DNA of 64,000 bases, taken from Nannobrachium achirus (Eukaryota > Chordata > Actinopteri > Myctophiformes > Myctophidae). Of the stretch, positions 405-63,400 are shown one piece after another. The position numbers and the translations under genes were made by a program. The stretch's first letter is position 1. Each line of letters opens with the position of its first letter. The notes beneath the pieces were generated by a model. It searched no databases. It saw only the letters and a program-made list of their open reading frames with translations, and was not told the DNA's origin. The stretch spans positions 57,736,419 to 57,800,418 of the forward strand of contig OY997652.1 of the NCBI GenBank assembly GCA_963921795.1, in the 5' to 3' direction.

Positions 405-477
405 GAAAATTGCAGACCTCCAAGCTCACAACGCGTCACAGCACGACACGTTGTGAGCTTGGAGGTTGGCTATTTTC
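405..477. repeat. Hairpin module, subtype GACCTCCAAGCTC
   Basis: Left arm GCAGACCTCCAAGCTCACAA is answered by TTGTGAGCTTGGAGG and GGCTATTTTC. This subtype replaces GATCTAC by GACCTCC and is confined to hAT-A copies. Confidence 0.85.
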
Positions 478-627
478 AGTACTTGATACCACACTAAACT
501 AAGCATTAAAAAATGCATGTGGCATATGGCATGGATTTCTACACAGTGAGGGCAATTCTTTCAGCATAAGATGCTGCATTCAAGTTCAGGAGAGTTTGGA
601 CAAGGCAATTCTCTTGAACGCTGCCTC

Positions 628-1015
628 TACTGTACATACATATATATATATATATACATATACTGTGAAGTCTTTAATTATACCAACCTGTTGCACATGG
701 AACTCACGGTGAAGTTTTTGTTTACAAAATGTTATTGTACAGTAGCTAGTACGGAAAAATGCCATTGGTGTATACAATATACCAAACTTTATGCACATGT
801 ACAGCTGAGAATGCTTTTTTACATTCTTTGCTCTTTTGCCTTTTGCACCCTTTCTTTCCTAAGCCATTATTACTTATATTTTTATCTTAGATGTGTTGTG
901 TTTTTTTTTTTCTATCACTGCATTGTCTGAAGGAAGCCGAAAAAAAATAAGTTTTACCCTTATGTACCTGTACAAAAGATGTAACAATAAAGTACAACCT
1001 TGAACCTTGAACCTT
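628..1015 (+). repeat. Insertion inside hAT-A with retroelement-like tail
   Basis: Comparison with the hAT-A copy near 60590 shows extra sequence between CTGCCT and TATGGCA. The insert has a (TA)n run, a poly-T tract, AATAAA at 985-990 and a tandem TTGAACC tail, suggesting a non-LTR element 3' end. Confidence 0.4.
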
Positions 1016-1375
1016 TATGGCACGGAAAGAGGGCATTTGCATTTCTCTCACCATAGTAAAAACTGCATTCATGGTCTGGACAGGGGACTTTTTAGACGGG
1101 TAAAAGGGCAGGGGCTCAAGCCCCCATAATCAGTCTTTGTGTGCACTTGCCTGCCTATACTAGAGCCCTGGGGGACCCCAATCATCTGGAATACAGAGTT
1201 TACGCGGTCAAATGATCCACGTCTTACACATTTTGGTTACTGTATTCCCATAACAGAAAGAGAAGAACATTGTAAAGACATTCTAATCTACCCACCAAAA
1301 CCTGTAACCGTCTTCCAACAGAAGCGAGAATGCATGGTTCTGTTTCTCATAGTAGAGTTGGTCTGTCAGCCTCAA

Positions 1376-1928
1376 AAGCCACTTTTCCACTGGCCCAACA
1401 CCACACCACTCCACACCACACCACACCACACCGCCCACTTGTGCCAGGTTTTCCACTACAAGGACCTGGGTAGAGTGGTGTGAAAGTGGTACTAAACATG
1501 GTACTAAAAATAATCCAATCTAGAGTAGGTCTGAGCTAGGCCAAACAGGGCCAAACACTTCATAATGACAGCTATCACTCAATGACTTTTCATTTAGACA
1601 ACCAGGATATAGTTGTAATACATGATAATAGATTCTATTGTGTTATAACCACTATCATAACCAATTAGTGTACTATAGTGTATTATAATTATCGTAATAC
1701 ATTAATACTTTATAGTGTATTATGATCACAGTTATAATCCATTATAGTGTATTATAATTTAGGATAGTTGTAATACAAATTTATATTGTATTATAATGAC
1801 AGTTAAAGGGGTACATTTTTTCTTACCGATAGGGGTACTTTTGTGAAATGGAAAATGTAGAAATCTTTATGTGGTATGGTGTAGTGTGGTGTGGTGTGGT
1901 GCTAAAGCTGCAGTCAAAAAGGAGCTAA
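1376..1928. mobile_element. MITE with CCACACCAC-type inverted ends, copy 1
   Basis: The ends AGCCACTTTTCCACTGG and CTGCAGTCAAAAAGGAGCT are imperfect inverted repeats, followed inward by ACCACACC and GGTGTGGT runs. The interior is AT-rich with repeated GTATTATAAT. A second copy lies at 23233-24058. Confidence 0.6.
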
Positions 1929-2152
1929 AATAAGTGTGGGCATCCCTCAAGACTTTTTCGTTTTTTATTGTGTCCTTGGGGGAAAATGTATCGGGGAATG
2001 TGAGATCACGTGACCCGAGTCATACCAAATGGATGGCTGTTCATCAAGTACGGGCTGGAGGACTGGGGTCGGAAAGGTCGCCGCTTAATACCCTCCCCGG
2101 GGGATCCCAAACAATTCCTTTGGCTTTCCCAGAGTGGAGTGTAACTTTCTGC

Positions 2153-2679
2153 CAGGGACGCGCATAGATTTTTAGAGAGGCATGGGCTGACATTTCTAAA
2201 AGGGCCTTTTGGTGAAAATATTGAAAATAGCTGACCTCCAAGCTCACTGATACTAAACTAAGCATAACATGGCAATACTGGAGAGGTGGCGTACAGCATG
2301 GATTTCTACACAGTGAGAGCAATTATTTTAACACAAGATGTTGTATTTAAGTTTAGGAGACTTTGGACTCTTGAACTTCAGGTATGGCATGGAAAGGGAT
2401 AGCTTCGCTGTTACTACATGTCATCTGTTCGACACCCAACTCTAACCCTTACCCTAAACCTAACCTCCGTGGGGTGAGTCACTAATCCTCCCGACACTCC
2501 TTTGTCGAACTGGCGGTTGTTCGAAAGAGCGAGATTTCCCCGCATGGAAAGAGGGCATTTGCATGTCTTTCACCATGGTAAAAAACTGCATTCATGGTCT
2601 GGAGAGAGGGCACTTTTTACAGACAGGTAAAAGGGCAGGGGCTCAAGCCCCCTTTGATGTCTATGTGTGCACATGCCTG
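2153..2679 (+). mobile_element. hAT-A copy 2, non-autonomous
   Basis: Starts CAGGGACGCGC and ends GCACATGCCTG. The flanks CTTTCTGC and CTTTTCTGC are near-identical direct repeats, consistent with a slightly eroded 8-bp duplication. The hairpin is reduced to one arm (2223-2247). The block 2430-2475 holds CCCTAA-like sequence shared with 41944-42015. Confidence 0.65.
2223..2247. repeat. Hairpin module remnant, left arm only
   Basis: GAAAATAGCTGACCTCCAAG then CTCAC. The right arm is missing and hAT-A sequence resumes directly. Confidence 0.7.
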
Positions 2680-3117
2680 CTTTTCTGCCATGTTTTCTGC
2701 TTGTAAACGTCGGCAAAGACATCGCCGTTCGTGATCATTTTGCAAATGTTTGTTTTGGCCAGGTCTCAAACAGTGGGAATCGAATGGGCTTGATACATAC
2801 ATAACAACATAATTAGAACAAATAAACATGGGTGACAGGGCTATTCTGTGATTTCTGTCTTGCATAATCCTTTGAATGGCTGTGCGTGGACCATTACAGT
2901 GCCATTGTTGCGGTTCCTGTTATGGAACTAACAGGGAACACCTGCACACCAGACTCTGGCGATTATTTATTTATTTTGCGTGATTGTATTTCTGATATTA
3001 CTACAGAAAAACAAGACCAAAAAAAAACACACTGAACGTGATTCTTGGCACCTCCCCTGAAAGGCCGGGTTGATGGAAACTATTACAGCTACAACCTCCT
3101 GTTGATTCTAACAAGAC
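2680..3117. other. No gene seen
   Basis: About 440 bp without a recognisable coding segment or a transposon family I can define. Confidence 0.4.
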
Positions 3118-61603: not shown

Positions 61604-61610
61604 CTATGGA

Positions 61611-61686
61611 GGACACGCACGCACGCACACACACACACACACACACACGCACACGCACACACGCACATGCACACACACACACACAC
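61611..61686. repeat. (CA)n/(GCAC)n microsatellite beside ttc33 exon
   Basis: Starts 8 bp from the exon's acceptor, so the polypyrimidine tract of the minus-strand intron is largely this GT repeat. Confidence 0.95.
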
Positions 61687-62142
61687 AATGTATTGCGCTA
61701 ATCCATATTTGGGCAATCATAGGACCAACGGCCACTTTCAAGATTTGTCAAAAATCTTCAAACACTTTCAAGATTGTTTTTTTTTTTTTTTTTTTTTATC
61801 CACAAGTTTCCGCGGGAGTTTACTGGAGACTATCAGGACCAAACTTCCGGGTTTAACAGCAGACATACAAGCTCACGTCGCGTCGCAGATGCAACCCGTT
61901 GTGAGCTTGTAAATCGGCGGCGGAAGATCGATGCAAACGTTTGCGCAATGCACTATGGGGCGTAGGAAACTCGTGGATAGCATATGTACGAGCTCGCACT
62001 GCGGCACGAAGTGGCACACTGTGAGCTTGTGTATCTGCTATTTCTAAAATGGATATCTATATAAAATATCTGCACAAAACTAAAATGACATTTTCCCAGT
62101 TTTAATGGGATAATCTCAACAAAGTTAATAGATAGTTGCAGA
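61687..62142. other. ttc33 intron with two divergent hairpins
   Basis: Poly-T run at 61776-61797. Hairpins at 61857-61918 (GACATACAAGCTCACGTCGC; GTTGTGAGCTTGTAAATCGG) and 61977-62046 (GTACGAGCTCGCACTGCGGC; CACTGTGAGCTTGTGTATCT). No gene. Confidence 0.5.
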
Positions 62143-62555
62143 TAGGGATGGGAAGATACGCAATATTATCGTTTATCGCGATAATCGTATCGTGGAGATT
62201 TGATTTATCGTGATATCGTCCTCCGTCATGCACTGGGATCAAAATTCACCTTTTATTTGCAGAGCTGCATATCTGTTACCATTTAAACCCTCTATAATTG
62301 GTGAAAGGTACTTATAATATACGTACTTGATAAAGTCTTTTTCCACTCTCTATCAAATGTATTTGCCAAAAAAAATAGCCGATCTACAAGCTCACAACGC
62401 AACGTGACGCGTTGTGAGCTTGTAGATCTGCTATTTTTTTGGCAAATGTTCCGCCACCAGGATAATGGATTTTGATTATCGCGATAATATCATAAATCAC
62501 GATTTCTTTGGTCACAATAATCGTGATATGAAATCTTCATATCGCCCCATCCCTA
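62143..62555 (+). mobile_element. hAT-D, complete non-autonomous copy
   Basis: TAGGGATGGGAAGATACG to ATATCGCCCCATCCCTA. Flanks GTTGCAGA (62135-62142) and GTTGCAGC (62556-62563) agree at 7 of 8. Hairpin at 62361-62447, near the centre. Confidence 0.88.
62361..62447. repeat. Hairpin module in hAT-D
   Basis: ATTTGCCAAAAAAAATAGCC, GATCTACAAGCTCACAACGC, with the inverse GCGTTGTGAGCTTGTAGATC and TGCTATTTTTTTGGCAAAT. The outer ATTTGCC palindrome is hAT-D specific. Confidence 0.93.
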
Positions 62556-62896
62556 GTTGCAGCTATATTAGTGGAATCTATATTAGTGGATGTATGACAT
62601 TGGTCAAGTGGGGGCTGAGGTTATGCTGGGGCACTGTCCTACTGAGCACTTTAGTGATGCGATTATGGGAACACTCATCTGACTCATCCTACCTGGAAAC
62701 TCCTCCGGTCAATATTGACTGAAGACGGACTACCGTACCTAGACTCTGAAGAAGGTCTCCAATGTTTGCCAAGTCCCTGTTTATGAAAACGGATATCCTG
62801 ATTCAGTGTCAAACTAGGGCTGTCGTGGTCGATTTTAGTAGACAAATGACTGCGATTAACCCATTTAGGCCTAGGAATTATTGACTGCTTTAACTA

Positions 62897-62973
62897 TTGA
62901 AAAATAGCAGATATACAAGCTCACAGCGCGGCACCGAGTGCCGCGCTGCGAGCTTGTAGATCTGCTATTTTTG
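62897..62973. repeat. Hairpin module, left of pair
   Basis: TTGAAAAATAGCAGATATAC, AAGCTCACAGCGCGGCACC, GAGTGCCGCGCTGCGAGCTT, GTAGATCTGCTATTTTTGAA. Confidence 0.92.
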
Positions 62974-63321
62974 AAAAAGTCGTGAAAATGTGTGCAAATC
63001 TTTGAATATATGCATTTTCAAAGCGAACGTCTGTAACTCAAATTTTGCTTCTGGGTGGTCCCTGGAACTAGATATTTTGAGATGCGGGTCCGTGGCCAAA
63101 TAAATATCATTTTGGGGGTCCTTCACATGAAAAGGTTTGAGAACCACTGACATAGTAGTCTCTCAAGAACAGACTAACTGAGCTCCAGTTAAGTGAAAAG
63201 GACCTTTTCTTTGACGATGGCCGGCCAGATTGCTGACATAGAAACATAGGTTTTTTCCAAAAATCTTAGAAGGATTCAAAAGACACTTATAGAATCGGGT
63301 CAAAATTCTAATTTTCACAAT

Positions 63322-63400
63322 TTTTCAAAAATAGCAGATCTACAAGCTCGCAGCGCGGCACTCGGTGCCGCGCTGTGAGCTTGTATATCTGCTATTTTTA
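63322..63400. repeat. Hairpin module, right of pair
   Basis: TTTCAAAAATAGCAGATCTA, CAAGCTCGCAGCGCGGCACT, CGGTGCCGCGCTGTGAGCTT, GTATATCTGCTATTTTTAG. Confidence 0.92.

What the first reader, a model, noticed from the sequence alone, without database searches (positions are those of the whole stretch)
405..63400. One hairpin module inside at least ten unrelated transposon families
About 54 loci share a stem whose left arm is ATAGCMGATCTACAAGCTC then ACAACGCGTCGC, with the inverted right arm and a 0-10 nt tip. Hosts include 8-bp-duplication hAT-like families (A-G, I), TTAA-type two-hairpin MITEs and TA-type family J, whose ends are unrelated. It is absent from the hAT-K, Helitron-like, L2 and SINE copies here. 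Because the hosts use different transposases, shared descent of the hosts is unlikely. The hairpin seems to be a separate genetic entity that invades or gene-converts between MITEs, or a convergently retained transposition or structure signal.
Basis: partly seen in the sequence, partly recalled or inferred. Interest (0 to 1): 0.93.

Follow-up and report, generated by a model that had tools for sequence, protein, structure and literature searches.

The report
One palindrome shared by transposon families
A 65-base palindrome sits inside several otherwise different kinds of tiny transposon in a fish-like genome, in hundreds of thousands of copies; it is inherited with each family rather than hopping on its own, but rare hybrids show that halves of different transposons can become joined through it.

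Summary
The hairpin is real and far commoner than the window shows: 716,439 arm matches (2 mismatches or fewer) in the 1.66-Gb source genome, 6 in the reversed-pattern control. It occurs in TTAA-type, apparently TA-type and 8-bp-duplication (hAT-like) elements, so the central surprise stands. 'Ten unrelated families' is inflated: A's hairpin belongs to a TTAA MITE nested in a hAT; J is a diverged C; A, E, I2 and inner F share hAT ends, as do D and G.

The hairpin does not invade copy by copy. Each family has its own core variant. Exact family-C flanks enclose 40-70 nt in 16,724 places and 0-30 nt in 844; the 100 of those listed look like internal deletions, none a clean empty site. C-left/E-inner hybrids: 0.

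Rare hybrids exist: seven places, six apparent events, three family pairs. Two read in full fuse a hAT-type left half (one with a TTAA MITE end) to the C right half. Best explanation: an old internal palindromic core, inherited vertically and rarely passed between MITE classes by nesting and by joining at the palindrome. The closest precedent is the coral CMITEs.

The parts
61270..61334 (.). Complete 65-bp palindrome, family G (core ACAACGCGTCGC); nearly identical to D at 30999-31063
30999..31063 (.). Complete palindrome, family D; its element has hAT-like end TAGGGATGGGACGATA
62143..62555 (.). Family D host (hAT-like, TSD GTTGCAGA/GTTGCAGC) with hairpin 62375-62434 and a possible degenerate TTAA-type half at 62275-62374
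   Evidence: leave-one-out homology to A weak, E=0.02-1.6
8977..9396 (.). hAT-A (ends CAGGGGTCTTC..., imperfect 8-bp duplication) holding a nested TTAA MITE (TTAACCACTTGAACCC at 9084) with a centrally deleted hairpin 9134-9173
3117..3580 (.). Second hAT-A copy, hairpin 3275-3339
17773..18273 (.). Family B (hAT-like, perfect 8-bp TSD ATTCCAAG, ends CAGTGTTG), centrally deleted hairpin 18009-18040
21444..21908 (.). hAT (TSD TTGTATCG) containing MITE C with hairpin 21642-21706
34826..35297 (.). Second copy of the same hAT + C composite, hairpin 35030-35072
11640..11907 (.). C MITE without that hAT (ends TATCGTCGTTGTCGGG / TATTGTCGTTGTCGGG), hairpin 11727-11791
10939..11115 (.). C copy whose hairpin has collapsed to the foot of the stem
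62856..63458 (.). Family F: TTAA-type MITE with two hairpins (62904-62968, 63331-63395), TIR CCCATTTAGGCCT
56348..56951 (.). Family F, second copy, 92% identical over 609 aligned columns; hairpins 56412-56476 and 56841-56905
48162..48584 (.). Family F, third copy, TTAA at both ends, partial hairpin about 48190-48220 and hairpin 48473-48537
54336..54851 (.). F/E junction: F arm and half hairpin (54600) joined to the right half of E ending CAGGTTGAGAACCACTG
39722..40161 (.). Family E (hAT-like ends CAGTGGTTCTCAACC), hairpin 39844-39908, core variant CATGCTC
28748..29063 (.). Family I2 (hAT-like, TSD CCCTGAAC/CCCTAAAC), hairpin 28821-28863
13742..13867 (.). Two broken hairpin halves with filler: I2-type left flank, I1-type right flank (candidate junction)
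336..1153 (.). Family H (hAT-like ends CAGGGACGCGCA / CAGGCAAGTGCAC, apparent 8-bp duplication CCTATAC- read by eye), hairpin 409-473, other sequence inserted inside
60768..61449 (.). Family G element (ends TAGGGCTGTCACGAT), hairpin 61270-61334, other repeat nested inside
42970..43034 (.). Hairpin of 'family J', a diverged C (both flanks align to C)

Best explanation
The hairpin is the old internal palindromic core of a group of MITEs, not an independently transposing entity. Shown: within the families examined it is copied with the element, in a family-specific form, and decays by internal deletions of the palindrome. It is also shown to cross between transposon classes by two routes. First, nesting: a hairpin-bearing TTAA MITE (A) or TA-type MITE (C) sits inside a hAT and is carried by copies of it. 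Second, rare joining through the palindrome, which fuses a half of one family to a half of another. Inferred: such joins arise by recombination, template switching, or deletion between neighbouring hairpins (any two are both direct and inverted repeats, and they often lie under 1 kb apart). Also inferred: a few hybrids with two usable ends founded new families. Why the palindrome has stayed intact in the active founders is unknown; inter-arm correction or a role in transposition are both possible.
For: Family-specific core variants: 19-nt arm differences average 1.72 within and 3.01 between families, 0 of 2000 label shuffles (74 hand-labelled arms of 94). Apart from the near relatives E and E' (1 of 31), the closest core pairs (D-G 0 of 31, A-E 1 of 31) are pairs whose element ends are similar. 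Within families hairpin and flank identity are similar. Family C: 16,724 exact-flank places with a gap of 40-70, and 844 with a gap of 0-30; in the 100 listed of those (all on C1-C3) the smallest gap is 3 and most keep part of one or both arms. A TTAA MITE with TTAA at both ends lies in hAT-A. TTAACC reads toward the hairpin in 39 of 253 flanks, against 2 on the opposite strand. Hybrids: E-left/C-right 4 places (3 apparent events), A/C 1, E/A 2. L062 carries an E-type left arm and a C-type right arm that switch at the tip, with full outer halves on both sides. Adjacent hairpin gaps in the sample: median 711 bp, 57% under 1 kb (n=49).
Against: Hybrids are very rare (7 places against 16,724 C and 4,772 E exact-flank places), and none was shown to have founded an amplified family. 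One of the four pairings answered gave 0; a fifth did not complete. Nesting is demonstrated only for A and C; for B, E, G, H and I2 the arrival of the hairpin is unexplained. Of 23 Charlie-like ends in the window 8 have no arm within 300 bp inward; whether these are truncated copies or truly hairpin-free relatives was not settled. Between-family hairpin identity is much higher than flank identity, which needs either recent transfer or strong constraint in the founders. Counts come from exact-flank patterns and are lower bounds.
Confidence: 0.55

Rival explanations
1. Plain shared descent: all hosts are offshoots of one old MITE or hAT lineage; flanks and ends diverged while the core was kept.
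For: A, E, I2 and inner F share ends; D and G share ends; J = C; A-D homology extends 39 and 17 nt beyond the hairpin; core distances follow end relationships for the closest pairs.
Against: TTAA-type (A-inner, F), apparently TA-type (C) and 8-bp-TSD (B, I2) ends are hard to derive from one terminus by point change; no convincing flank homology was found for B, H or E against C, nor TTAA ends in B, C or H.
Confidence: 0.2
2. The palindrome is a self-mobile element that inserts into MITEs.
For: Same core in different classes; enormous copy number.
Against: No clean empty site in the 100 listed of 844 short-gap C places; no constant edge, because the shared stretch differs between pairs and the outward stem is family-specific; no target duplication at the hairpin edge seen by eye; flank pairs are largely fixed.
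Confidence: 0.07
3. The palindrome is a working signal (transposase, host-factor or replication structure) kept by selection in founders of each family, shared by convergence or borrowing.
For: 14 of 31 stem pairs show changes on both sides, 0 of 500 shuffles as many; stem kept over between-family divergence; the coral CMITE authors suggested a role for their conserved core (PMC2872659, section 14 read).
Against: Paired changes can also come from inter-arm copying; amplified copies lose parts of the centre (listed places); hairpins lie in only 1 of 8 piggyBac-transposase loci read, about 32 kb.
Confidence: 0.18

Closest known systems
CMITE elements of Acropora corals (Wang et al. 2010, PMC2872659; abstract and sections 10 and 14 read)
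   Same: MITE families with different TIRs share an internal region more conserved than the TIRs; TTAA target sites and CC-starting ends, as in the A-inner and F elements here; tandem arrays also occur.
   Different: CMITEs are all TTAA-type, about 100 bp, about 1,600 copies estimated in one species. Here the core is a near-perfect palindrome, spans TTAA, apparently TA and 8-bp classes, has over 700,000 arm matches, and hybrids of different classes are seen. No sequence comparison with CMITEs was made.
Angel MITEs of zebrafish (recalled; original paper not read)
   Same: Teleost MITEs that fold as imperfect palindromes with structure kept despite sequence divergence.
   Different: As recalled, no core shared across different transposon classes was described. 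Sequence not compared.
Palindrome instability (recalled; one review, PMC7999016, seen in a search listing only)
   Same: Internal deletions and rearrangement at palindromes, as in the listed places of families C and E.
   Different: Here the palindrome is dispersed and halves of different transposons are found joined through it.

Membership tests
CMITE-like group (conserved core, variable ends) | Internal region more conserved between families than the ends | tested here: met
   Core consensus 0-7 of 31 different between families, 7-10 for family B whose cores are mostly truncated; most flanks not alignable
CMITE-like group (conserved core, variable ends) | TTAA target sites, CC-starting ends | tested here: inconclusive
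   Met for F and A-inner; not met for C (TA-like) or B and I2 (8 bp)
CMITE-like group (conserved core, variable ends) | Sequence homology to CMITE core | not tested
   No CMITE sequence was used in any call
piggyBac-type MITE (families F, A-inner) | TTAA duplication and matching TIRs | tested here: met
   62856-63458 and 48162-48584 with TTAA at both ends; L039 MITE TTAACCACTTGAACC...GATCAAGTGGTTAA. No empty site was seen
piggyBac-type MITE (families F, A-inner) | Autonomous partner with the same ends | tested here: inconclusive
   116 scored PF13843 matches in the genome, many with open frames; in 8 loci no TTAA-TIR pair was found with my filter
hAT-type MITE (families B, I2, outer parts of A and C) | 8-bp TSD and short CAG.. 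TIR | tested here: met
   B ATTCCAAG and the hAT around C TTGTATCG perfect; I2 CCCTGAAC/CCCTAAAC one mismatch; A imperfect
TA-type MITE (family C) | TA duplication flanking matching TIRs | tested here: inconclusive
   TIR TCGTCGTTGTCGGG preceded by TA at both ends in several copies (L039, L043, 11649, 34952) but not in all (L041 second end, 21564, 29963); no empty site
Self-mobile palindromic element | Precise empty sites and constant edges | tested here: not met
   (empty sites tested in family C only, 100 of 844 places listed)

The most novel reading that the evidence does not exclude
The palindrome is a selfish joint: by letting broken or copied MITE halves fuse through it, it keeps acquiring new transposon ends from different superfamilies (hAT, piggyBac-like, TA-type). 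The core thus outlives every transposase that moves it and has reached several hundred thousand copies.
Probability: 0.25. Interest if true: 0.85.

Novelty: new variant of a known kind. Interest (0 to 1): 0.62.

Why it matters
How MITEs obtain and keep interiors unrelated to any autonomous transposon, and how new families arise, is an old open question. Here one core, close to 2% of the sampled sequence, sits in two or three target-site classes. Natural hybrids caught in one genome make the end-swapping idea directly testable. It is also a very large dispersed set of near-perfect palindromes whose decay can be followed copy by copy.

Tried and rejected
Tried and rejected. (1) A circle-integration origin for two-hairpin F: the supposed second hAT end proved to belong to a stretch present in only two F copies and flanked by CTATGTCA. 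(2) RNA family: no Rfam match at gathering score. (3) Bacterial or viral carriers: viral contigs 0 and 0; 23 single 18-mers in genome contigs, best hairpin E-value 0.33. (4) A hAT-A copy without its TTAA MITE: 17 pattern hits; of the 2 read, L052 still holds hairpin and MITE remnant, and L053 has only MITE-right-like sequence and no clean empty site; 15 not read. (5) C-left/G-right flank similarity is not significant after multiple testing. (6) TTAA remnants in B, C, H and I2 were not convincing; E.in and E.out (both p=0.003) and G.L (p=0.02) are borderline among about 29 tests. (7) piggyBac-transposase loci as carriers: hairpins in 1 of 8. (8) The F-out/C-right hybrid count was asked and never answered. 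(9) Literature: eight searches; the only precedent I noticed for a shared core was CMITE; the 14-nt arm piece AGATCTACAAGCTC is in no held main text.
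Full report
Observation. The shared arm and stem are in the sequence and far beyond chance. Complete copies are 65 bp: two 31-nt arms and a 3-nt tip. The window lies in a 1,658,514,493-bp genome at C15:57736419-57800418. There the arm matches 358,301 + 358,138 places at up to 2 mismatches, against 0 + 6 for the reversed pattern. In 20 stretches of 10 kb, placed by hand on C1-C14, a hairpin profile finds 66 loci, covering 3,478 bases, close to 2% of the readable sequence. 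The window, with about 52-55 loci in 64 kb by a different count, is roughly 2.5 times denser.

Palindrome. Across 18 complete copies (17 distinct), 91.7% of stem cells pair, and 14 of 31 pairs show a change on both sides (shuffle mean 7.3; 0 of 500 reach it). Copies are related and arms may correct each other, so this shows that symmetry was kept, not why. Beyond the shared stem the pairing continues outward for 5 bp or more in 12 of 26 loci, against 0.16% of random places, with family-specific letters. The palindrome therefore has no constant edge.

Hosts. With end and duplication tests, alignments and the genome sample, the hosts resolve as follows. F is a TTAA element with two hairpins. A is a hAT that holds a TTAA MITE carrying the hairpin; in L039 that MITE has TTAA at both ends inside hAT-A sequence. 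C is a MITE whose ends read TA-TCGTCGTTGTCGGG or close variants at both ends in several copies, not in all, so TA-type is likely but unproven. It occurs without a hAT around it at 11640-11907 and inside a hAT at 21444-21908 and 34826-35297. B has a perfect 8-bp duplication, I2 and D one with a mismatch, and H an apparent one read by eye. E and G have hAT-like ends. J is a diverged C. The ends of A, E, I2 and inner F are similar (z about 8-17, 60 shuffles each), and those of D and G likewise (z about 8-11). The labels Charlie-like and, for I1, Tol2-like rest on recall. So there are several end classes and two or three target-site types, but not ten unrelated families.

TTAA linkage. The TTAA-type end TTAACCNNTTNANNCCT (up to 1 mismatch) occurs 8 times in the window (0.6 expected). 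By the script's arm list, 6 of 8 are followed by a hairpin arm 30-70 nt on (random mean 0.48, maximum 5 in 20,000); by eye a seventh faces the broken hairpin at 19827. Members of one family are not independent. In window, sample and L024-L031 together, TTAACC reads toward the hairpin within 120 nt in 39 of 253 flanks, against 2 on the opposite strand; a few of the 39 are short stretches next to the hairpin rather than ends.

Inheritance within families. Arms are closer within than between families (1.72 against 3.01 of 19 nt; 0 of 2000 shuffles; 74 of 94 window arms labelled). Hairpin and flank identity within families are alike, with the hairpin often slightly higher. Of 88 loci with both arms in window, sample and L024-L031, 57 had both flanks in multi-member clusters, and these fall into 12 cluster pairs, mostly one per family; 21 had one flank unclustered and 10 both. 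Genome-wide, the exact C flanks enclose 40-70 nt in 16,724 places and 0-30 nt in 844. Among the 100 listed short-gap places (all on C1-C3) the smallest gap is 3, and by reading most keep part of one or both arms with the rest gone. The exact E flanks enclose 40-70 nt in 4,772 places, and the listed ones mostly carry the E-type arm CATGC. This is copying plus decay, not repeated invasion or routine conversion.

Crossing between families. Four hybrid pairings were answered. C-left/E-inner: 0. E-left/C-right: 4 places. A-right-flank/C-right: 1. E-left/A-right-flank: 2. Five of the seven places were read with their surroundings. L062 has the E left half from CAGTGGTTCTCAAG, a hairpin whose left arm is E type and right arm C type with the switch at the tip, and the C right half to its TA end. 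L063 has an E-related left flank (the flank type of cluster 20, which pairs with E-inner), E-type core and C-type foot on the right. L064 and L065 look like one locus on two contigs, differing in hairpin deletions, with an E'-like left flank and C-type right arm. L066 joins hAT-A and its TTAA MITE end to the C right half, with C-type core in both arms. Of the two E/A places, seen only as matched strings, one has an E-type left and A-type right arm, the other A-type arms on both sides. So the switch point varies. In the window, 54600 joins F to E at a half hairpin and 13742-13867 joins two broken halves. Halves of hAT-like, TTAA and C elements do become joined through this palindrome, rarely. 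Adjacent hairpins in the sample have a median gap of 711 bp (n=49), so deletion between neighbours could make such hybrids without any transposition.

Mechanism. I favour an old palindromic core, inherited with each family, that reached new classes through nesting and rare joining, after which a few founders amplified. Shown: nesting for A and C, rare hybrids, vertical inheritance, internal decay. Inferred: the recombination step and founder amplification. Unknown: why the stem stayed near perfect in founders.

Against. No hybrid is shown to have amplified. B, E, G, H and I2 lack an explanation for how the hairpin came. Of 23 Charlie-like ends in the window, 8 have no arm within 300 bp inward, and I did not settle whether these are truncated or truly hairpin-free. 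The piggyBac loci read do not carry it as a rule (1 of 8).

Comparison. The coral CMITEs share the pattern of a conserved interior with variable ends but are described as TTAA elements and far fewer. I noticed no paper on this palindrome in eight searches of an open-licence library, which misses most subscription journals, so an existing repeat-library entry is possible.

Limits. Pattern counts demand exact flanks and are lower bounds. 

Noticed in passing
window 14929-15261, 18311-18709, 22611-22948 (+): Exons of a prostaglandin E receptor EP4-like GPCR: 18311-18709 matches EP4 structures at 1.7e-45 and Pfam 7tm_1; 22611-22948 matches 7tm_1 below its cut-off; 14929-15261 had no Pfam match and is assigned by eye. 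41333-41740 (-) looks like TTC33 by recall, without a Pfam match.
   Followed up: partly
window 53299-53557: Tandem array of 59-bp units, each with a partial hairpin arm, inside a family G copy: a palindrome fragment turning into a small satellite.
   Followed up: no
L064 (C12:62131050-62131900) and L065 (C170:34200-35050): Apparently the same hybrid locus on two contigs with different hairpin deletions, suggesting allelic or recent duplicate variation in palindrome decay.
   Followed up: no
G000:C2:71346413-71843994 (+): Sixteen piggyBac-transposase (PF13843) matches on one strand within 0.5 Mb, fifteen without an internal stop.
   Followed up: no
G000:C1:82177671-82178753 and L055 (C18:60345001-60346080): PF13843 matches inside very long open frames (3951 and 2461 aa).
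   Followed up: no
L024-L027 (C1:26.7-34.6 kb): A further hairpin host with its own flanks (ending ...AAATAAGCAAAAAA and ...CAAAAGAAGCAAAAA toward the hairpin), repeated at close spacing near the start of C1, not clustered with any window flank.
   Followed up: no
window 56348-56951 and 62856-63458: Two F copies share a stretch absent from three other F copies aligned and flanked by CTATGTCA, probably a later insertion.
   Followed up: partly
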